Assembly (NCBI GenBank): GCA_949752745.1
Contig: OX457027.1
Span: 17,874,603 to 17,938,602 of the forward strand
DNA: 64,000 nt
Reading direction: 5' to 3'
From: Protula sp. h YS-2021
Lineage: Eukaryota > Annelida > Polychaeta > Sabellida > Serpulidae
Positions 262 through 64,000 of this stretch are shown here, piece after piece. Positions within the stretch are counted from its first letter, which is position 1. Each line of letters starts with the position of its first letter. The position numbers were made by a program, and so were the translations under genes. The notes under the pieces are model-generated. The model saw only the letters and a list, made by a program, of their open reading frames with translations. It was not told where the DNA came from and did no database searches.

Positions 262-20352
<20,091 letters not shown>

Positions 20353-28744: not shown

Positions 28745-34482
<5,738 letters not shown>

Positions 34483-37226: not shown

Positions 37227-37458
37227 CTAGGCGATGGAGCCGTACTGCACATAGCCTCGGTCGTTGACAGGCCAGGTGAGGAGGTCATTGTTCATGCCGA
37301 GATTGGTGCGCTTCTCCTGGCGCGTCGAGTGCAGGATGGACGACTCGAGCGGCTCACGCTCGGGCATACACAAGTGCAGCTTGTCCAGCAGGTGACCCGG
37401 CCAGAACGCGTTAGGGTCCGTGCGTCCGTAGATGTTCACGTAGCGCGTGGCTAGGCTC
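37227..37458 (-). CDS. EFCAB12: EF-hand gene exon 10 (terminal)
   Basis: SLATRYVNIYGRTDPNAFWP, GHLLDKLHLCMPEREPLESS, then NNDLLTWPVNDRGYVQYGSI, Ala and TAG at 37229-37227. GC-rich coding exon; the FWPGHLLDKL block is the most recognisable part of the family. Confidence 0.92.
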
Positions 37459-40400
37459 CTGCAAATCAAACGCCACACGCTCCCTGGTGAATATATGCAT
37501 ACGCCGTGACAGAACTCACAGAAATGGGCATCCAATGCTATCAGTCCTTGTGGAACAATATCAGTTAAGTTACCTACGTCCGAGGTTCAAATCTCCTTCA
37601 GTAAAACACAGAGGAGAGAAGACATATTTACATTTTCCTTTTTTTAAAAGATATTCTGTCGGTAGCATACATTTTGCAAGAGTGAAAACAATAACCCATC
37701 AACTACTTTAATATTAGCTGTGTGACATCAATCGTTTGTGTAGATTTTGGTGATTTGGCCCACAGACGGACGCACACGTTTGGTTAGTTACTTAGTTATA
37801 TGATTTGTTTAACGCCACGACCGACCCTTAGTGTCAACACATGTCAATAATCAGTTAAAATCCAGGTAAGTTAAAACCGTGTATATTCCAAAATTATAAA
37901 ATAAGCAGCGTCTAGAAATATTGATGTTGAGACGGACAGACCTGGTGAGGCGCTCATACTCCTCAAACGTAAGCCAACAGTCGACTTGTCGTCTGATGAT
38001 GGCCTTCCCGCTCGACAGCGCCATCTTGTGGGGTATGGGCGCGACCTTTGACCTCTTCGGATAAGCCCGCCGGCTGTCCACGTACACTTCTATCTTGCCA
38101 TCCTTGGCTACTTTAACCTGTAGAAATGTTCTCAACTATGCACTGAGATTTTCACACAAGGCTCTAAAAAGAACTTTAAATGCCCAAGTCTATAACCACA
38201 ACATTATTCTAATTCACGATGCTCGCTTATTACTTTTTTAAAACTCTTTTCATATCACGTGGTCGGGGAAACAATTATACTTTCAATGTTACATCTCAAC
38301 AATTCAAGGAAGGTTGTTGCCAAGGAGGAGGGTTGTTGCCAAAGAGGAAGGTTGTTGCCAAGGAGGAGGGTTGTTGCCAAGGAGGAGGGCTGTTACCAAG
38401 GAGGAGGGTTGTTGCCAAAGAGGAAGGTTGTTGCCAAGGAGGAGGGTTGTTGCCAAGGAGGAGGGTTGTTGCCAAACAGGAAGGTTGTTGCCAAGGAGGA
38501 GGGTTGTTGCCAAGGAGGAGGGTTGTTGCCAAAGAGGAAGGTTGTTGCCAAGGAGGAGGGTTGTTGCCAAGGAGGAGGGTTGTTGCCAAGGAGGAAGGTT
38601 GTTGCCAAGGAGGAGGGTTGTTGCCAAAGAGGAAGGTTGTTGCCAAGGAGGAAAGTTGTTGCCAGGGAGGAGGGTTGCTGGCAAAAGTCAAAAGACTAAA
38701 TTACGGAGAGACCAATACTGTTACTTAATTGTGTTCTGTGGGTCAGGATAAAGACTGGTATTATCCCTCACAGCAGGGATGGGCGATTTAACACTGCCTG
38801 AGTTGCAAAGGTGAAATGTGTGTATATTGACTTTTGGGAGGAAGGCGAGGATCGGGCCATGATAGAGTACCGCCTTACTTTTGTCGTCTGCTTCACCATT
38901 TCGTCCTCTTGCGATGGAGACTTGTGAGTGGGGAGGGGGGGGGGGGGGGGGCGAGGGTGAGGACGGGGGTTAGGGGGGCGATGATAGGGTACCGCCCTAC
39001 CTTCGTCGTCTGCTTTACCATTTCGTCCTCTTGCGATGGAGACTTGTGTGTGGGAGGGGGGAGGGGGGGGGCGAGGGTGAGGAGGGGGTGAGGGGCGCGA
39101 TGATAGGGTACCGCCTTACTTTTGTCGTCTGCTTCACCATTTCGTCCTCTTGCGATGGAGACTTGTGAGTGGGGAGGGGGGGGGGGGGCGAGGGTGAGGA
39201 CGGGGGTGAGGGGGGCGATGATAGAGTACCGCCTTACCTTCGTCGTCTGCTTTACCATTTCGTCCTCTTGCGATGGAGACTTGTGTGTGGGAGGGGGGAG
39301 GGGGGGGGCGAGGGTGAGGAGGGGGTGAGGGGCGCGATGATAGGGTACCGCCTTACCTTCGTCGTCTGCTCTACCATTTCGTTCTCTTGCGATGGAGACT
39401 TGTGTGTGGGAGGGGGGAGGGGGGGCGAGGGTGAGGAGGGGGTGAGGGGCGCGATGATAGGGTACCGCCTTACTTTTGTCGTCTGCTTCACCATTTCGTC
39501 CTCTTGCGATGGAGACTTGTGTGTGGGAGGGGGAAGGGGGGGGCGAGGGTGAGGAGGGGGTGAGGGGCGCGATGATAGGGTACCGCCTTACTTTTGTCGT
39601 CTGCTTCACCATTTCGTCCTCTTGCGATGGAGACTTGTGAGTGGGGAGGGGGGGGGGGGGCGAGGGTGAGGACGGGGGTGAGGGGGGCGATGATAGGGTA
39701 CCGCCTTACCTTCGTCGTCTGCTTTACCATTTCGTCCTCTTGCGATGGAGACTTGTGTGTGGGAGGGGGGGGGGGGGGGCGAGGGTGAGGAGGGGGTGAG
39801 GGGCGCGATGATAGGGTACCGCCTTACTTTTGTCGTCTGCTTCACCATTTCGTCCTCTTGCGATGGAGACTTGTGTGTGGGAGGGGGAAGGGGGGGGGGC
39901 GAGGGTGAGGAGGGGGTGAGGGGCGCGATGATAGGGTACCGCCTTACTTTTGTCGTCTGCTTCACCATTTCGTCCTCTTGCGATGGAGACTTGTGTGTGG
40001 GAGGGGGAAGGGGGGGGCGAGGGTGAGGAGGGGGTGAGGGGCGCGATGATAGGGTACCGCCTTACTTTTGTCGTCTGCTTCACCATTTCGTCCTCTTGCG
40101 ATGGAGACTTGTGTGTGGGAGGGGGGGGGGCGAGGGTGAGGAGGGGGTGAGGGGCGCGATGATAGGGTACCGCCTTACTTTTGTCGTCTGCTTCACCATT
40201 TCGTCCTCTTGCGATGGAGACTTGTGTGTGGGAGGGGGAAGGGGGGGGGCGAGGGTGAGGAGGGGGTGAGGGGCGCGATGATAGGGTACCGCCTTACTTT
40301 TGTCGTCTGCTTCACCATTTCGTCCTCTTGCGATGGAGACTTGTGTGTGGGAGGGGGGAGGGGGGGCGAGGGTTAGGAGGGGGTGAGGGGCGCGATGATA

Positions 40401-43400
40401 GGGTACCGCCTTACTTTTGTCGTCTGCTTCACCATTTCGTCCTCTTGCGATGGAGACTTGTGTGTGGGATGGGGGGGAGGGGGGCGAGGGTGAGGGGGTG
40501 ACGGGTGAGGGGGGCGATGATAGGGTACCGCCTTACTTTTGTCGTCTGCTTCACCATTTCGTCCTCTTGCGATGGAGACTTGACTTGTTTCTTTGGCTCT
40601 TTTGGTGGCTCAGCAAAATGCTGGGAAAATAACTCCATGGCAGGCTGTCGGATCTTCCTTTTTAAATCTCTATGAATTCTTTCCGGTGGAAATAGCAGCA
40701 CTGAAAAGTGGTTTCAGTAATATTTTGCGTTTTACCAAAATTAAGCCGTTATCTGACGTAAGTTACGGTTCAGTTTCTTCTGCAAATTTAAGGTGTGATC
40801 ACTTGTTCTGTTAATACTGTTAATGTAGAAAATCTGTACTCTTCAAACACAACAGAATGAACAACCTAAAAACAGCTGTAAAACTAAAGGACATACGAAT
40901 TTAAATCTAGTTTAAATTGTAAACTGCTGCAAATAATATCAGCTCGCTACAAGAAATTGAGACCTTTAACCATGATAGAAACTACAAAATTTCACGGCAG
41001 TTCCGACATCCTGGTCGCCACTCGGCTATATATGTCGGCATACTACGAGCACCGTCTGGCAGAGCACAGAGCTCTGTTTTTATGCAGCACACGGCGTTAC
41101 CTTTCTTGAGCAGGTCCTCGCTCAGCGGCACGTTACGCTCTTTACACAGCTTGCAGATATCGTTGTATTCCTTGAAGCGCAGCTGGCGGAATTTGTTGAC
41201 CTGCTCGGCGACTTCGCCGCTCAGCGTGGACGGCGTCAGGTGGCTGTCGATAGCCGCGTCCCCTACAACCGAGCGTCATAACGTGTGTCCTTACGACGGG
41301 CCATTGTTCCGGCACCAAAATAAGGGGCACGGAAGCAGTTGTTACTGCATATTTTAAGACAGATTCAATACCATAAACATAAGTGCGTTATTATTCAATC
41401 ACACAATTAAACTAGAACCTCACTTCGCTAGCGAAATGTTAAACACTTGACAAAAATTAAAACGCAAAAATACTTCCTTCAATAAGTTATTTCTTGAATA
41501 ATATATTGCAAACAACACAGCTTGAACACGTCTTATAAGCCGAGTAGCGTTTGGTGTCTGTTGACTTCAGGTTTTATTGACTATCTAGCATACGCCGTGC
41601 TATCTATTTACGCAGTGAGAGCTCACACAAAACTGACTGTGCAAGTGTGTGTGATGTGGGTTAAATGCTATGCATTTACTTGCAAAAAATACACTCTTTT
41701 CACATGGCGTTTTAACAAAGAAAACGAAATCAAAGACGAAAATAAAAAGTGACATGCACATGTTCAGATCAAGCTCTTCATAAGTCCCAAGTTTCATGGT
41801 CGTAGGGCCCATAGTGTCAGAGAAGAAGAAGACACAAAAAATCGGAAAAACTGTCAAGAAGAAAAAAAAGGACGAATTTTGCTCGCCTAAATTCATATAA
41901 CCCTTACAAGCCAAAGGCTTGTCAAGTGTTAATTAATAGACTTTAAATTTAATAGCGTGCATTTCTGTGTTCATCATTTTAATATATCGATCATTATATA
42001 TAAAATATTATATATATAATTCATTAATTGTCATAAAGTTTTCGATGTAGTTGCTGCTCATCGAATTTCAAGTTATAATGAGTGTGTTATAATTCAATCA
42101 TATAATTAAACTATACATTATCAAGTCCAAGCGACCGTCCAGTATCAAAGGGTTTCATAATAGCGGATCAAATTTCGCAGATCAACTTGAAAGCTTTGTG
42201 CTGATTAACATTTTCAGAGATCATGTTCGATAAGCTCCTTGCTAGAATCCTATTAAAGACGAGCGTTCTAAAACTAGAACTGCCGAACACACTAACTCAG
42301 TCCTCCCCATCCATCCTGAATCCAAAGGATGGAAAAAGTGCGGCGAAGATAATTTTCTGGTAAAGTCCTCACCTGTTTTAAGAACATTCTTAGCATCCAG
42401 ATTGCTCGTCTCTCTTCTTTTAATTGGTTTCTGCGAATCATTTGGCTATAACATAAAACGCAACATGATTTAAACATCACACACAACAAATAAAAAAGCA
42501 ATGAAGGCAACTAGAACAGAAAACTGTACACATATTTATTCACACAACTGAGGCAATACAAGCCAACATGTCTTCTCTCAACCGCCATGTTGGTTTGTTC
42601 AAATACTAGTAGTCTGTGAGCAAAGATAGTTTCACATCGACACTTAGAGCTGACCGTGCGGGGTTTTAAGGGCGACAAGCGGAGGTCACACTTACCCCCT
42701 TCTTGCCTGTCAGCTTAGCCAGCGCCTCCCTGTCGCGTTTCCTCAGATCCAACATGGCCTCTTCCGAGTCAGCAATTCTCGTCTCTACTCTCGTATCGGG
42801 CGGCGGCGGCTCGAGATTTCGTGTCGATGACGTGGAGCTGATGGTACTCAGCGCTGATTTCACCCGCGACGGACTCTGTGTACGGTCCTGGAACACGGCA
42901 GCACATCACCACCGATACATACAGTCAAACTTCCTCACAACGATCACCTTCCCGACCGACTAAATGTTCAGTTGTTAACTAAATACAGATGTATTTCAGA
43001 ATGAAAGCTAGAAAGTGGAAGACAATAGTGTTCATTGGTTAGGTTATTTACAAAGTAGAGGTGTTCGCTAATGGAGGTTTTGCTGTGCTGATAACTGCCA
43101 GACACAGATGAATACCACAAACGGTCACCAGCTACAAGCACATCGAAAACGGTTAGCTGTTAAATTTGATTTAAGAAAGCGAATGACATAGAAATGCGCC
43201 TTTCCATGACAGTGCCCCTTTACAAGGACGCAACAAGGAATATATCTGCGAATGATAACGCCAAGCAACATGCCGAATAATGCTCAAAATGGTTTGCTCC
43301 ACTCGCATCGAGGTCTTAGGGCAAACCTGGCTGTGATCTGTGAAACTTACATGAGAAGTAAAGGTGCGGTCACCCTCTCTGTGGGCAGACGGCATGCTTC

Positions 43401-45895
43401 CCGTTCCGGCACTAGATATGGATTTCGTGACGTTTACTCTTTCATAGTCTGGAGACTCAAATCCCGACAGCTGTGAAAACTTGCCTAAAACAACACACAT
43501 TTTTTCGATGTCTTATTAGTCCTGATACATTTCGTTATTTCACTATTATTGATGCTGATGAATCGCATTACATTTCATCCACATGATTATGAAGATTTAT
43601 GTGTCATTTTTGTTGCCTTTGTTTGTCAATTGTATGACTCCAGCACGGGACCCTGGATATCCAGGCCATGCACTCACTCGGCGACGCAGAGAAGGAAGCG
43701 CTGTGCAGCTGTTTCCTCTTCGATTCCCGCTTCTCGATTTTCCACAGGCCCATTCCCTTAGCTAATTCTCTGTAGTCCAGCTCGTTGTTTAAATCGGTGT
43801 CCAGCGCCAGGATGAGATCTTCTAGAACCACTTCTGATATGGGGATGTTTGCCTGGAAATGTGTGCCCGAACTTACACTTACATGAAATGACAGTATGTT
43901 GCTTTAACGCCGACAAGCAAGTTCACTGTTGCGCTCACTTCGGCGAAAATGCGTATCTCGGTGAAACATTTGTGGTTAAAGCTCGATAGATTTCGAATGG
44001 CGCTTATTTCAAGCCAGTACGGGCGAACAAGTGACGTAATCAGACAGTACAAGCCGACCCCTTCCAACAGAGCAGTTATTTCTGAGCATTTAAGTCTCTT
44101 ATTACGATAAGTTGTTAACGACCACAGACTGCTCCTACGTTTTATGAAAACAAAGTACTTTTAAGTACCTTTAAAAGTGCACATCACAACACGTGTGTAA
44201 AACGTATCTGCATGGATACCACACAGTACCACACATGGTAAGTTACCTTCTGAATGGCGGTCCTGAATTCGTCTCTGGATACTTTCCAGTCCTTATCTTT
44301 GTCTACGCTCCGGAACAGATCAATCAGCCGGAGCTTCTTCTCGTGCAGAAACTTCTCTATAATCTTAATAGCTAATGGTGAAGGACGCTGTACTAATGGG
44401 ATCTCTTCTGGAAGGACAGCTTCAAGAGGAGTTTCTTCCCTCGGCTAAATATTGAAACAAGTAACCGGCAACGGAATTTTGTTCATTCAAAATTCAATAT
44501 CTACAAGTTAACTGCGAGGTTGGAAATGGTTGCCTGGCTTTAAAAAAATGTAACAGTTCGGTACAACTCTAACCAAAATATCCAAACTCTCATTTATATT
44601 GATCAGCTACCGCGACCGACGACGGGGGGAGGGGGGACGGCAAAGGCATGGGGATAAAGACCGAAGGAAAAGGGCACGCAAGGAGTAAAGGCCAAGGGGG
44701 TTAAAGGCCTGTTTTCGACGAAATCATAGTCTCTTAAAGCCAAAGAGTGTTGAATATCATATTTTTTATTTAGATGAATTACTTCCTTTCGTTTGACTGA
44801 GCCTCCAAAAAATAAAAGAAAAAAAAAAAACAAAAAAAAAAAAACAACAAAAAAAAAAAAACAACAAAAAAAAAAAAACAACAGAACACAGATTTAATGG
44901 CGGACTGGTAAGAGACTACATTCGCACGTACGCAGAACTGGAAAACATTCATTTGAAAGTGATCCTGCGGCTCAGATCCCAAGTTCGTAGGGTTAATGCA
45001 CTTAAAATATATATGAACCACCAGAGACGTTAGAAATACCAGCCAACTGACTTGTAAGATGCGCATGCGTACTTACAGGTCCTTACTACCGCGCATGGAA
45101 CAGTGCCATTTAAAAAAACCATCAGGACCAAAATAGCCATTAGAACTCTCTCATCTTTAGAAAACAGCAAAGAAGATATGTAAAAAATACAAGTAATTAT
45201 ATGTTTTGGGGTCTGCTATAGAAAACAGTCGAAAATAAAGTGTAACTAAATCAGCATTTATCAAAATAACTAACTTTCGTTCCACTGTTATATACGTTAA
45301 TGAAGACATGACAAATGCATACCGGCGTAGGCGGTCGCTTCGGATATTTCTCATCAAGCAATCTTCTCAGAACTCTTTTTTCAAGAGGTGTTTTATCGGG
45401 CTTTTTGCTTAAATACTCGTCATTCAATCCCATACTGTCTAAATCTTTCCTAAACGCCTTTCTATCATCCATCCATTTCTTATATTTAGCCACTTTGTCT
45501 TTCTCAAGTTGTTCCTGGATGATTTCTTTTGACGGTCCAAAATCAACCCGGACTGGGGGCTGCAACTCAGCAGTGACGCAGGTTGGCTCGATATAATCCC
45601 CAATTTTCTTGTCTTTGTCCGTGTACATTGGAGGTGCAACAATAAATCGTTTTCTACTGAGCGGAGCCCCCCAGATTTTCACAGCATATTTATAAGACTT
45701 TGTCTTCTTTAAGTCTCGATGCGCGTATCTTTTGAGCTGCTCTTCAATAGGCAGGTGATCTATGCGATCGGGGTCGAACAACCAGTCAAAGTTGAAGCTT
45801 GACCAGGTATCCATGTCGTCCGAAGCCACTGAAGCACTGCGCTCTGTCTCCATGGAGCCCGTGGTGACAGAGGCCTCCGTGATAACAGCTGCCAT
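37227..45895 (-). CDS. EFCAB12: Two-EF-hand protein, EFCAB12-like, 10 exons
   Basis: Exons in order: 45895-45323, 44444-44247, 43852-43678, 43484-43351, 42887-42696, 42445-42373, 41262-41093 (or -41101), 40620-40537, 38117-37942, 37458-37227. The start MAAVITEASVTTGSMETERS is followed by a charged N-terminal region with DLDSMGLNDEYLSKKPDKTP. EF-hand loop 1 (DKDKDWKVSRDE, ~239-250) and loop 2 (DTDLNNELDYRE, ~275-286) both have the calcium-binding acidic residues. A Ser-rich linker leads to the C-terminal block RYVNIYGRTDPNAFWPGHLL, and the protein ends VQYGSIA. The FWPGHLLDKL block and the DLDSMG..EYL..KP motif recall EFCAB12, a poorly characterised EF-hand protein; the exact family is inference. 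Calcium binding is likely, further role unknown. One exon is expanded into a tandem array (see separate entries). Confidence 0.85.
37942..38117 (-). CDS. EFCAB12: EF-hand gene exon 9
   Basis: VKVAKDGKIEVYVDSRRAYP through PHKMALSSGKAIIRRQVDC and WLTFEEYERLT. Acceptor TCTACAG in phase 0; the donor needed by frame is GTCTGT at 37941 (phase 2), a non-optimal site, and joins to give LTR-SLATRYVN. Confidence 0.85.
38306..38680. repeat. 18-bp minisatellite (GGTTGTTGCCAAGGAGGA), ~20 units
   Basis: Near-perfect 18-mers with GAGGAG/GAGGAA variants. The unit is a multiple of three, so every frame without a stop stays open, giving the 70-170-codon artefact ORFs on both strands. In the same intron as the micro-exon array. 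Confidence 0.97.
38879..40456 (-). repeat. EFCAB12: Tandem array of 14 splice-competent 42-nt micro-exons (~118-bp unit)
   Basis: Fourteen copies of a ~113-121-bp unit, each with a C-rich tract ending (A/T)CACAAG (transcript sense), 42 nt coding SPSQEDEMVKQTTK, and donor GTAAGG followed by CGGTACCCTATCATCG. First and last copies are 38879-38920 and 40415-40456; copy 15 is the authentic exon 8. The 42-mers come in only three versions: one common, a synonymous one in copies 2, 4 and 8, and copy 5 with SPSQENEMVEQTTK. All are free of stops and in phase 0/0. Copy 2 has donor GTAGGG. The G-runs on the plus strand vary in length. The array lies in the intron between exons 8 and 9, so each copy could be spliced in without shifting frame; use is not shown by the sequence. 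Confidence 0.92.
40537..40620 (-). CDS. EFCAB12: EF-hand gene exon 8: full-length source of the exon array
   Basis: Acceptor ATTTTCCCAG, then 28 codons: HFAEPPKEPKKQVK followed by SPSQEDEMVKQTTK, donor GTAAGG, phase 0 at both ends. The second half (42 nt, 40578-40537) is the unit that is repeated 14 more times downstream with its donor. The product is a charged Lys/Glu linker. Confidence 0.85.
41093..41262 (-). CDS. EFCAB12: EF-hand gene exon 7
   Basis: DAAIDSHLTPSTLSGEVAEQ then VNKFRQLRFKEYNDICKLCK through PLSEDLLKKG. GC-rich. Two donors: GTAACG after 41101 (phase 1), or GTGTGC after 41093 (phase 0). The next recognisable exon needs phase 0, so the second is used here; alternatively an unseen small exon lies between. 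Confidence 0.8.
42373..42445 (-). CDS. EFCAB12: EF-hand gene exon 6
   Basis: PNDSQKPIKRRETSNLDAKN then VLKT, ending phase 1 at donor GTGAGG (42372). Acceptor GTTATAG. The frame is fixed by the flanking exons; the longer open frame seen here is a different one. Confidence 0.8.
42696..42887 (-). CDS. EFCAB12: EF-hand gene exon 5
   Basis: 64 codons, DRTQSPSRVKSALSTISSTS through EEAMLDLRKRDREALAKL ending TGKKG. Low-complexity Ser/Thr and a PPPP run, then a charged helix. Acceptor GTTCCAG, donor GTAAGT, phase 0. Confidence 0.88.
43351..43484 (-). CDS. EFCAB12: EF-hand gene exon 4
   Basis: Acceptor TGTTTTAG; completes a Ser, then KFSQLSGFESPDYERVNVTK and a Ser/Thr-rich stretch ending DRTFTSH. A second AG (TTCACAG, 14 bases on) would put a stop in frame, so the first is chosen. 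Donor GTAAGT, phase 0. Confidence 0.85.
43678..43852 (-). CDS. EFCAB12: EF-hand gene exon 3: second EF-hand
   Basis: ANIPISEVVLEDLILAL, loop DTDLNNELDYRE, then LAKGMGLWKIEKRESKRKQ. Acceptor TTTCCAG, donor GTGAGT at 43677, phase 1. Reading past the donor stays open to the intron stop, which explains the longer frame. Confidence 0.9.
44247..44444 (-). CDS. EFCAB12: EF-hand gene exon 2: first EF-hand
   Basis: 66 codons, PREETPLEAVLPEEIPLV through the helix IIEKFLHEKKLRLIDLFRSV and loop DKDKDWKVSRDE, ending FRTAIQK. Acceptor ATATTTAG, donor GTAACT; phase 0 at both ends. Confidence 0.92.
44603..44885. repeat. A-rich low-complexity tract in EF-hand gene intron 1
   Basis: Poly-A runs punctuated by CAACA at 44817-44882. 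The poly-F frames on the minus strand are artefacts. Confidence 0.9.
45323..45895 (-). CDS. EFCAB12: EF-hand gene exon 1
   Basis: 191 codons, the longest real exon in the window. ATG at 45895 in good context (GTCGACATGG). Ends LLDEKYPKRPPTP at donor GTATGC, phase 0. Rich in Lys/Asp/Glu, without a signal peptide or membrane segment, so a cytosolic or ciliary location is likely. Confidence 0.92.
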
Positions 45896-62439: not shown

Positions 62440-63070
62440 GGAGTGCACGGATCGGGAGAGTCCGTCCGTCCGTCCGTCTGTCCGCAGTGAGTTCTTATGA
62501 AATTAATGAGTCGATTTGTCTCAAAACATACATACATATTGGGGTACATGTCTAGATGATGCCCGTGTTATTTTTTTCGTTTCCTCATAAATTCTATTTT
62601 TGGGAAATTTTTTAACATAGCGGGGGTTTTCGTGCATTTCTTTTCACTTTGGCAGGCTATATCTCCAAAACAGTTTGTTGGATTAGGCTGAAACGTGGCA
62701 AGAACAGCACACATATAGTGCAAATGTTTACTGCGAAGTTTTTTTTTCATTTCCGCTGAAAATGTATTTTTGGCGAATTTTTACATTTTTGATTTTGAAC
62801 TTTTTTGGCCATATTGTTGCGATATCTCCAAAACGGTTTGTTGGATTAGGCTGAAACTTGGCAAGAAGAACTCACAAAACGTGCAAAATGTTTACTGCGA
62901 AGTTTTTCTTCATTTCCATGAAAAATGTATTTTTGGCGATTTTTTTAATTTTTGATTTGTAACTTTTTTGGCCATATTGTTGCGATATCTCCGAAACAGT
63001 TTGTTGGATTAGGCTGAAACGTGGCAAGAAGAACCCACATATAGTGCAAATGTTTACTGCGAAGTTTTTT
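62440..63070. repeat. ~170-bp tandem repeat 'ccatattgttgcgatatctcc', three units
   Basis: Units begin near 62654, 62820 and 62986 with GGCTATATCTCCAAAAC or GCGATATCTCC(A/G)AAAC, then TTTGTTGGATTAGGCTGAAA and AATGTTTACTGCGAAGTTTT. A (CCGT)n block at 62460 precedes them. Confidence 0.88.
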
Positions 63071-63072
63071 TT

Positions 63073-64000
63073 AGACCAGCCGACTATGTCGGGCTGGTCT
63101 TATCCTATCAATAGAGGGGTATCCGTCGTCCGTATGTACTTCTCTTTAAAAATTATTTTTTGTGGCGCTCCGCCAAAAATTGGCCAAATGGGGGGCATTT
63201 CAAATTTTTCGGTTGCCAATTTTCAAAATGCTTCTTCTCCCTCAGTTTTGATCGGATTCCTCTCAAATTTTACACGAATATGCCCTAGGTAGACCTCTTT
63301 TGAAAAATTACTCATTTAGGCGATCCGCTAAAAATTGGCTAAATGGGGGACATTTTTTTAAGTTTTTGGTGTCAAATTTTCAAATTGCTTCTTCTCCCAC
63401 AATTTTGATCGGATTCCTTTCCAATTTTGGATAGTTGTTTTCAAGGTAGACCTGTCGTGAAAAATTACTCTTTTGGGCGATCCGGCAAAAATTGGCCAAA
63501 TGGGGGACATTTGTAATTTTGTGGTTGCCAATTTTCAAAATGCTTCTTCTCCTACAATTTTGATCAGATTTTCTTCAAATTTTGCACCCATATTCCCTAG
63601 GTAGACCTATTTTGAAAAATTACTTATTTTGGCGATCTGCCAAAAATTGGCCAAATTGGGGACATTTTCAAATTTTTTGGTCTACAATTTTCAAATTGCT
63701 TCTTCTCGCACAATTTTGATCGGATTCCTTTCCAATTTTTGATAGTTGTTCTCAAGGTAGATCTCTCTTGTAAAATTACTTGTTTTGGCGATCCGTCAAA
63801 AATTGGCCAAATGGGGGACATTTTTTTAATTTTTTGGTGTCAAAGTTTCAAATTGCTTCATCTCCCACAATTTTGATCGGATTCCTTTCCAATGTTTGAT
63901 AGTTGTTCTCAAGGTAGACCTCTCTTGAAAATTTTTTTTTTTTTTTGGCGATCCGCCAAAAATTGGCCAAATGGGGGATATTTGTAATTTTGTGGTTGCC
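63073..64000. repeat. Hairpin-headed ~155-bp tandem array running off the window
   Basis: Starts with the hairpin AGACCAGCC / GGGCTGGTCT (63072-63099), then about six units of ~155 bp, each with TTGGCGATCCGCCAAAAATT, GGCCAAATGGGGGACATT and TTCTCCCACAATTTTGATCG. Alternate units are more alike (GTGGTTGCCAATTTT versus TTGGTGTCAAATTTT), giving a ~310-bp higher-order period. Confidence 0.9.

What the first reader, a model, noticed from the sequence alone, without database searches (positions are those of the whole stretch)
38879..40620. Exon turned into a minisatellite: 14 in-frame, splice-competent copies of a 42-nt micro-exon
Seen: a ~118-bp unit is repeated 14 times beside exon 8 of the EF-hand gene. 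Each unit has a C-rich tract plus AAG, 42 nt coding SPSQEDEMVKQTTK without a stop, and a GT donor. All are phase 0/0, so any number could be included. The 42-mers exist in only three versions (one synonymous), while the linkers vary. The copies start half-way into the 84-nt source exon, so the expansion made a new 3' splice site. Inference: the locus may yield proteins with 0-14 extra 14-residue charged repeats and differ between individuals. Tandem micro-exon expansion of this size within an ordinary gene is unusual.
Basis: partly seen in the sequence, partly recalled or inferred. Interest (0 to 1): 0.86.

Follow-up and report, generated by a model that had tools for sequence, protein, structure and literature searches.

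The report
Minisatellite multiplying an exon's splice end
In an animal gene for a calcium-binding protein, the last 42 bases of one exon and the start of the next intron have been copied 14 more times as a probably unstable DNA repeat; each copy could in principle be read as an extra in-frame exon, but the sequence gives no clear sign that the copies are kept for coding, and their splice entrances look weak.

Summary
On the minus strand of an EFCAB12-like EF-hand gene of an unidentified, apparently lophotrochozoan animal, a 113-122-nt unit gives 14 extra head-to-tail copies (38879-40456) after exon 8. Each has a C-rich tract, AAG, a 42-nt open stretch in phase 0/0 and a GT donor. The 42-mers vary as much as the linkers (5 of 42 against 10 of 62 columns, C tract and gap columns aside, p=0.78). 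Donors match the native one in 10 of 14. Acceptors (AAG after C runs) score below all 13 native acceptors I could place, and no better than most ordinary intronic AGs. I read it as a young, G-quadruplex-prone minisatellite, born by tandem duplication across the exon 8-intron 8 border, mostly removed with intron 8, perhaps disturbing splicing like the human ABCA7 VNTR. Use as a variable cassette-exon array is not excluded (about 0.25) and needs long-read cDNA. Small tandem exon arrays are known elsewhere (IGHG3 hinge, Tetrahymena LRR genes). No transcript or population data were reached.

The parts
45323..45895 (-). EFCAB12-like gene, exon 1 (ATG at 45895)
   Evidence: open frame and donor; homologue tblastn
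44247..44444 (-). exon 2 (first part of the EF-hand region)
   Evidence: Pfam EF-hand_6 25.6 bits, cut-off 25
43678..43852 (-). exon 3
43351..43484 (-). exon 4 (frame and splice sites; one weak tblastn match, E=0.001)
42696..42887 (-). exon 5
42373..42445 (-). exon 6 (placed by frame and splice sites only)
   Evidence: no tblastn match
41101..41262 (-). exon 7, ends in phase 1
   Evidence: homologues align unbroken from 40701; acceptor cacttttcag, donor gtaagg
40537..40578 (-). source 42 nt at the 3' end of exon 8 (type A, SPSQEDEMVKQTTK)
40415..40456 (-). copy 1 (type A)
40298..40339 (-). copy 2 (type A)
40179..40220 (-). copy 3 (type A)
40066..40107 (-). copy 4 (type A)
39948..39989 (-). copy 5 (type A)
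39828..39869 (-). copy 6 (type A)
39710..39751 (-). copy 7 (type B, synonymous)
39592..39633 (-). copy 8 (type A)
39474..39515 (-). copy 9 (type A)
39357..39398 (-). copy 10 (type C, SPSQENEMVEQTTK)
39238..39279 (-). copy 11 (type B)
39120..39161 (-). copy 12 (type A)
39001..39042 (-). copy 13 (type B; donor GTAGGG)
38879..38920 (-). copy 14 (type A)
38817..38878 (-). tail after the last copy: aligns to the linkers up to ACACACA, lacks most of their C runs and the G-quadruplex motif; probably like the single-copy intron start from which the linkers grew
   Evidence: ancestry is inference
38307..38677 (-). second, unrelated 19-bp minisatellite (19.5 copies) in the same intron
37942..38117 (-). 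exon 9, entered in phase 0
37227..37458 (-). exon 10 with the stop codon

Best explanation
A tandem duplication that spanned the exon 8-intron 8 border of an EFCAB12-like gene joined the pyrimidine-rich, CA-ended start of intron 8 to the codon AAG that lies just before the last 42 nt of exon 8. The unit then grew into a C/G-rich minisatellite (14 extra copies, C runs lengthened, G-quadruplex motifs on the plus strand) by unequal exchange of one or several units. Each copy holds a native-like donor and a weak candidate acceptor (C runs, then AAG). Shown: anatomy, phases, equal divergence of coding and linker parts, weak acceptor scores with a locally trained model. Inferred: the origin; that the array is normally removed as part of the 2.4-kb intron 8; that single copies are at most occasionally included as a 14-residue insert; and that the array may lower correct joining of exons 8 and 9, as a donor-bearing VNTR does in ABCA7. 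Copy number probably differs between individuals.
For: Unit and copies. Exon part varies like the linker: 5 of 42 against 10 of 62 columns, p=0.78. Array acceptors score below all 13 placed native ones (native leave-one-out), and 66-68% of 211 other intronic AGs score at least as well as the best of the 14; six versions trained on nine sites agree that all 14 lie below every native site, with 55-85% of 213-214 AGs at or above the best array site. 14 of 14 units with a full linker, but not the last copy with its tail, carry a plus-strand G-quadruplex motif. Type B units (copies 7, 11, 13), each followed by a type A unit, point to multi-unit exchange. In the printed part of an alignment of 24 of the 36 homologues I saw no repeat at this place (by eye). 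ABCA7: VNTR that begins at the donor; skipping of the next exon rises with its length (passages).
Against: With mammal-like acceptor weights written from memory the array sites (-3.6 to 0.0) overlap the lower range of the nine native sites of this gene (-1.9 to 3.7), and 13 of 14 lie above the decoy median of -3.4. In 14 of 14 copies the first AG after the one inside the donor is the in-frame acceptor, with a CTCAC or CTAAC branch-like motif 30-38 nt upstream. All three A/B differences are silent: 0.030 (transitions only) or 0.008 (all substitutions) by chance if taken alone, 0.18 or 0.057 for at least three of the five changes. C-rich tracts can serve with poly-C-binding proteins in mammals (abstract). 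In ABCA7 the retention of a repeat unit through a repeat-borne donor did not change with VNTR length. No RNA was examined.
Confidence: 0.6

Rival explanations
1. A working cassette-exon array: copies are spliced in, in varying number, giving EFCAB12 proteins with 0-14 extra charged 14-residue repeats that vary within and between individuals.
For: All 14 copies in frame and open; donors identical to exon 8's own in 10 of 14 and AAG|GTAAGG in 3 of 14 (the scoring model there included exon 8's donor); no AG between donor and acceptor and a branch-like motif before each; all three A/B differences synonymous; IGHG3 and Tetrahymena precedents.
Against: Weak AAG, C-run acceptors; no excess conservation of the coding part; with so few changes in a young array, intact frames are expected anyway (inference); introns between copies would be 71-80 nt while the nine native ones are 193-2419 nt. 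Two homologue searches showed no protein with the array, but this says little, since no protein of the same species was among them.
Confidence: 0.25
2. The array is mainly a splicing hazard: repeated donors are used without the acceptors, so linkers are retained and the frame stops early.
For: Reading on from exon 8 through the first linker meets a stop in copy 1; in ABCA7 a repeat-borne donor is used and the next exon is skipped more with longer VNTRs.
Against: No RNA here; in ABCA7 unit retention was rare (2 +/- 1%) and independent of VNTR length. It may hold alongside the best explanation.
Confidence: 0.1
3. Copy number is an assembly artefact.
For: C-run lengths differ between otherwise identical units, as sequencing error would make them; genome, reads and other haplotypes could not be reached.
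Against: Units carry distinct, linked substitutions in a regular order; even a wrong count would leave an array.
Confidence: 0.05

Closest known systems
ABCA7 intron 18 VNTR, human (PMC5954066, passages read)
   Same: Tandem repeat that starts at an exon's splice donor, its first two bases being the donor GT; associated with splicing of the next exon.
   Different: 25-bp units, no exon piece or new acceptor described in the passages; 12 to about 427 units, with measured effects. Here units of about 118 bp with 42 nt of exon, and no RNA data.
IGHG3 hinge exon multiplication, human (PMC8674132, passages read)
   Same: Small exon repeated in tandem, number differing between alleles (2-5 hinge exons, 15 residues a step).
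   Different: Few copies, repetitive element of about 200 bp, part of an expressed protein.
90-bp exon arrays of Tetrahymena LRR genes (PMC6564038, passages read)
   Same: Tandem exon-intron units with uniform exon size and intron phase; unequal exchange proposed; 1-51 such exons a gene in T. thermophila.
   Different: Large gene family, phase 2, RNA-seq support and purifying selection; here one gene, phase 0, no RNA data and no excess conservation.
Tandemly repeated 81-base exons (Davis et al. 1988, title seen in a reference list only) and micro-exon genes of Schistosoma mansoni (PMC10526429, start of abstract and one passage)
   Same: Small repeated exons (by the title).
   Different: Micro-exon genes encode secreted proteins and are built of short exons; here an ordinary gene with one partial exon multiplied.
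[quoted passage not shown]
   Same: A duplication supplies new splice sites and a possible new intron.
   Different: The cases in those passages duplicate exonic AGGT or an intron-exon piece, mostly once (two fission-yeast genes with several 24-bp copies); here the junction makes AAG after an intronic pyrimidine tract, and the unit is repeated 14 times.

Membership tests
Minisatellite / VNTR | Head-to-tail units of about 10-150 bp with signs of unequal exchange | tested here: met
Minisatellite / VNTR | Copy number differs between individuals | not testable with these tools
   one sequence only; the search of the window's own genome did not complete
VNTR carrying a splice donor (ABCA7-like) | Units carry the exon's donor | tested here: met
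   13 of 14 copies GTAAGG, 1 of 14 GTAGGG
VNTR carrying a splice donor (ABCA7-like) | Length alters splicing of the host gene | not testable with these tools
   no RNA
Tandem cassette-exon array (IGHG3, Tetrahymena LRR) | Equal-sized, phase-symmetric exons | tested here: met
   14 of 14 are 42 nt; phase 0/0 between exon 8 and exon 9
Tandem cassette-exon array (IGHG3, Tetrahymena LRR) | Acceptors of native quality | tested here: inconclusive
   below all 13 placed native sites with the locally trained model; overlap with the lower native range with recalled mammal-like weights
Tandem cassette-exon array (IGHG3, Tetrahymena LRR) | Coding part more conserved than the intron part | tested here: not met
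   p=0.78 and 0.60; low power
Tandem cassette-exon array (IGHG3, Tetrahymena LRR) | Copies present in transcripts | not testable with these tools
   no sequence of this species found in two protein searches
Micro-exon gene (schistosome MEG) | Gene built of short exons (3-81 bp) | tested here: not met
   exons of 573, 198, 175, 134, 192, 73, 162, 164, 176 and 232 nt; 1 of 10 is under 82 nt
[quoted passage not shown]
   each copy has GT and AG from the duplicated piece; tail aligns to the linkers up to ACACACA
[quoted passage not shown]
   no RNA
EFCAB12 | Homology to named EFCAB12 proteins and an EF-hand | tested here: met
   36 homologues, several named EFCAB12-like; EF-hand_6 25.6 bits, cut-off 25, other EF-hand models below theirs

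The most novel reading that the evidence does not exclude
A hypervariable cassette-exon array caught at birth: one duplication across an exon-intron border made a complete acceptor-exon-donor module, its G-quadruplex-prone linker drove it to 14 in-frame copies, and poly-C-binding proteins let a variable number of 14-residue repeats enter an EF-hand protein, differing between individuals.
Probability: 0.2. Interest if true: 0.75.

Novelty: new variant of a known kind. Interest (0 to 1): 0.45.

Why it matters
It is a clear example of a minisatellite whose unit holds candidates for every element of an exon, so it would test how unstable repeats feed new exons or disturb splicing, and how weak a C-rich AAG acceptor the spliceosome of this animal accepts. 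If copies are included, protein length would become a repeat-driven variable trait in an otherwise ordinary gene.

Tried and rejected
Rejected: the 84-nt exon 8 (stop in frame after exon 7; homologues cross 40620 without a break), although the AG at 40620 scores well by the recalled mammal-like weights (2.4). Rejected: selection as the needed explanation of the sameness of the 42-mers. Tried without result: a search for short pieces of the species' own proteins with repeats (741 candidates, none at E<=0.001); naming the organism (tree of 24 of 36 homologues plus the window; P0023 and P0026-P0036 left out; the window groups with five unnamed sequences, 98/98); papers on EFCAB12 (16 listed, titles and abstract starts only; none mentions this feature there). 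Paper searches for tandem duplication/microexon/minisatellite/alternative splicing (19 listed), exon array/VNTR/exon duplication (9 listed), tandemly repeated exons (15 listed of 1,694) and cassette exon/minisatellite/tandem array (4 listed) showed no minisatellite of this build in the titles and abstract starts listed, apart from the relatives named under Closest known systems; that is no proof that none is in print. Limits of the tests: splice scores rest on 9 or 13 native sites, four of them placed by eye in a neighbouring gene; the mammal-like weights are recalled; the limits of the C tract were my choice (with all 83 linker columns: 14 of 83, p=0.60); the protein search scored only the 7995 candidates sharing most words.
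Full report
Gene. The minus strand of 37227-45895 encodes an EF-hand protein. A homologue search with a 665-aa joined query gave 36 proteins at E<=0.001 (only the 7995 candidates sharing most words were scored), several named EFCAB12-like (Haliotis, Ylistrum, Crassostrea, Lineus, Branchiostoma); the best has E=3.3e-168 and 45% identity over 98% of the query, and the highest identity listed is 51% over 40%, so the same species is not among them. Pfam gives EF-hand_6 just above its cut-off and other EF-hand models below theirs. In a tree of 24 of the 36 homologues plus the window protein, the window falls with five unnamed sequences (98/98), inside a 22-row set with the mollusc, nemertean, Lingula and Owenia rows (87/97, not a starred fork); I call the host apparently lophotrochozoan and no more. 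The corrected model has 10 exons, 692 residues and one stop at the end.

Correction to the finding. Homologues carry VLLYPPDKPH...RQPG...LLSSHFADPPKRP without interruption, and the window has VLLFPPERIHRDLKRKIRQPAMELFSQHFAEPPKEPK in one frame from 40701. Exon 8 is therefore 164 nt, 40700-40537, phase 1 in and phase 0 out. The multiplied piece is its last 42 nt, starting 122 nt into the exon.

Array. There are 15 occurrences of the 42-mer: one in exon 8 and 14 after it. Units are 113-122 nt, linkers 71-80 nt. Type A occurs 11 times of 15 (source included), type B 3 times with three synonymous changes, type C once with D to N and K to E. All 14 extra copies follow AAG and are followed by GT; included together they make an 888-residue frame. 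The frame claim is worth less than it looks (inference): the length is divisible by three because the first AG after the C tract is a codon-aligned AAG of exon 8, roughly a one-in-three chance, and the stop-free frame is inherited from the exon.

Selection. In an alignment of the 14 units with complete linkers, variable substitution columns are 5 of 42 in the exon part and 10 of 62 in the linker once C tract and gap columns are left out (p=0.78), or 14 of 83 with all linker columns (p=0.60). Mean pairwise differences are 0.038 and 0.044 with the source unit, 0.040 and 0.041 without it. Of five exon changes three are silent (P for at least three: 0.18 under transitions only, 0.057 under all substitutions). 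The three that separate types A and B are all silent, which taken alone has a chance of 0.030 or 0.008; that subset was picked after the fact, but it is the best sign for selection that I found. Youth and homogenisation of the whole unit are enough to explain the sameness of the 42-mers; weak selection is not excluded.

Turnover and origin. Type B units (copies 7, 11, 13) are each followed by a type A unit and share their own linker type; units 7 and 11 differ at one column, units 4 and 8 at none. This is the pattern of multi-unit exchange. The sequence after the last copy aligns with the linkers up to ACACACA and then differs, where the linkers run into AAGTCTCC of exon 8. I infer that a duplication joined the intronic CA run to CAAGTC of exon 8; a junction at the shared AAGTC is also possible. 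Each of the 14 units with a full linker, but not the last copy with its tail, carries a G-quadruplex motif on the plus strand; 14 of the window's 23 plus-strand motifs lie in the array (8 more are on the minus strand). G-quadruplex-forming minisatellites are unstable in yeast tests (abstract starts in the listing).

Splice sites. Array donors equal exon 8's own in 10 of 14, are AAG|GTAAGG in 3 of 14 and weaker in copy 13; the model used for scoring included exon 8's donor. Acceptors: 13 native sites could be placed in the window, nine from this gene and four, by eye, from a GNAT-family gene at 32156-33201 on the plus strand; 0 of 13 is AAG, and they have 3-7 T in positions -14 to -4. The 14 array acceptors are all AAG with 1-2 T. 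With weights trained on the 13 sites, native leave-one-out scores are 2.2 to 11.5 and array scores -4.9 to -3.1 over 20 positions; 66% of 211 intronic AGs outside the array score at least as well as the best array site (68% over 14 positions). Six versions trained on nine sites also put all 14 below every native site; the share of AGs at or above the best array site runs from 55% to 85%. Against this, mammal-like weights that I wrote from memory put the array sites (-3.6 to 0.0) beside the weaker of the nine native ones (-1.9 to 3.7), 13 of 14 above the decoy median; each has a branch-like CTCAC or CTAAC 30-38 nt upstream and no AG between that of the donor and the acceptor; and mammalian alpha-CP proteins promote exons with C-rich tracts (PMC4797308, abstract). 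The acceptors look weak but are not excluded.

Likely working. Most transcripts probably join exon 8 to exon 9 and discard the array (inference). The nearest documented case I found is the ABCA7 VNTR, which begins at the exon 18 donor and varies from 12 to about 427 units; a rare isoform (2 +/- 1%) retains one unit, independent of VNTR length, while skipping of exon 19 increases with length (PMC5954066, passages). Here each unit adds a piece of exon and a possible acceptor. Reading through the first linker stops in copy 1, so use of a copy's donor without its acceptor would truncate the protein.

Compared with what is known. Tandem small exons exist: IGHG3 hinge exons, 2-5 per allele (PMC8674132, passages); 90-bp exon arrays in Tetrahymena, up to 51 exons a gene (PMC6564038, passages); tandem 81-base exons in Schistosoma (title in a reference list). 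Tandem duplication as a source of splice sites is established (PMC3443670, PMC4974935, passages). What sets this locus apart is an array grown from a partial exon in an ordinary gene, with the candidate acceptor made at the duplication junction. I call it a new variant of a known kind.

Noticed in passing
window 38307-38677: A second minisatellite, 19-bp unit in 19.5 copies, in the same intron 8 between the exon array and exon 9; it may be unstable too.
   Followed up: no
window 32156-33201, plus strand: Exons of a GNAT-family acetyltransferase gene (Pfam Acetyltransf_1, 38.8 bits for the 51-aa piece 33049-33201; other pieces read by eye). It resembles NAA10, a name recalled and not tested. 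Used for four native acceptors.
   Followed up: partly
window 8544-9113, 19280-19534, 62659-63996: Further tandem arrays (20-bp unit x 28.6; 37-bp x 7; 163-bp and 157-bp units near the window end): the region holds several minisatellites, of which the exon array is one.
   Followed up: no
window 38860-38878 and the linker after copy 11: The linker of copy 11 and the tail after copy 14 share GTACTCT where the other linkers have GTACCCT, a trace of past exchange or of the ancestral state.
   Followed up: no
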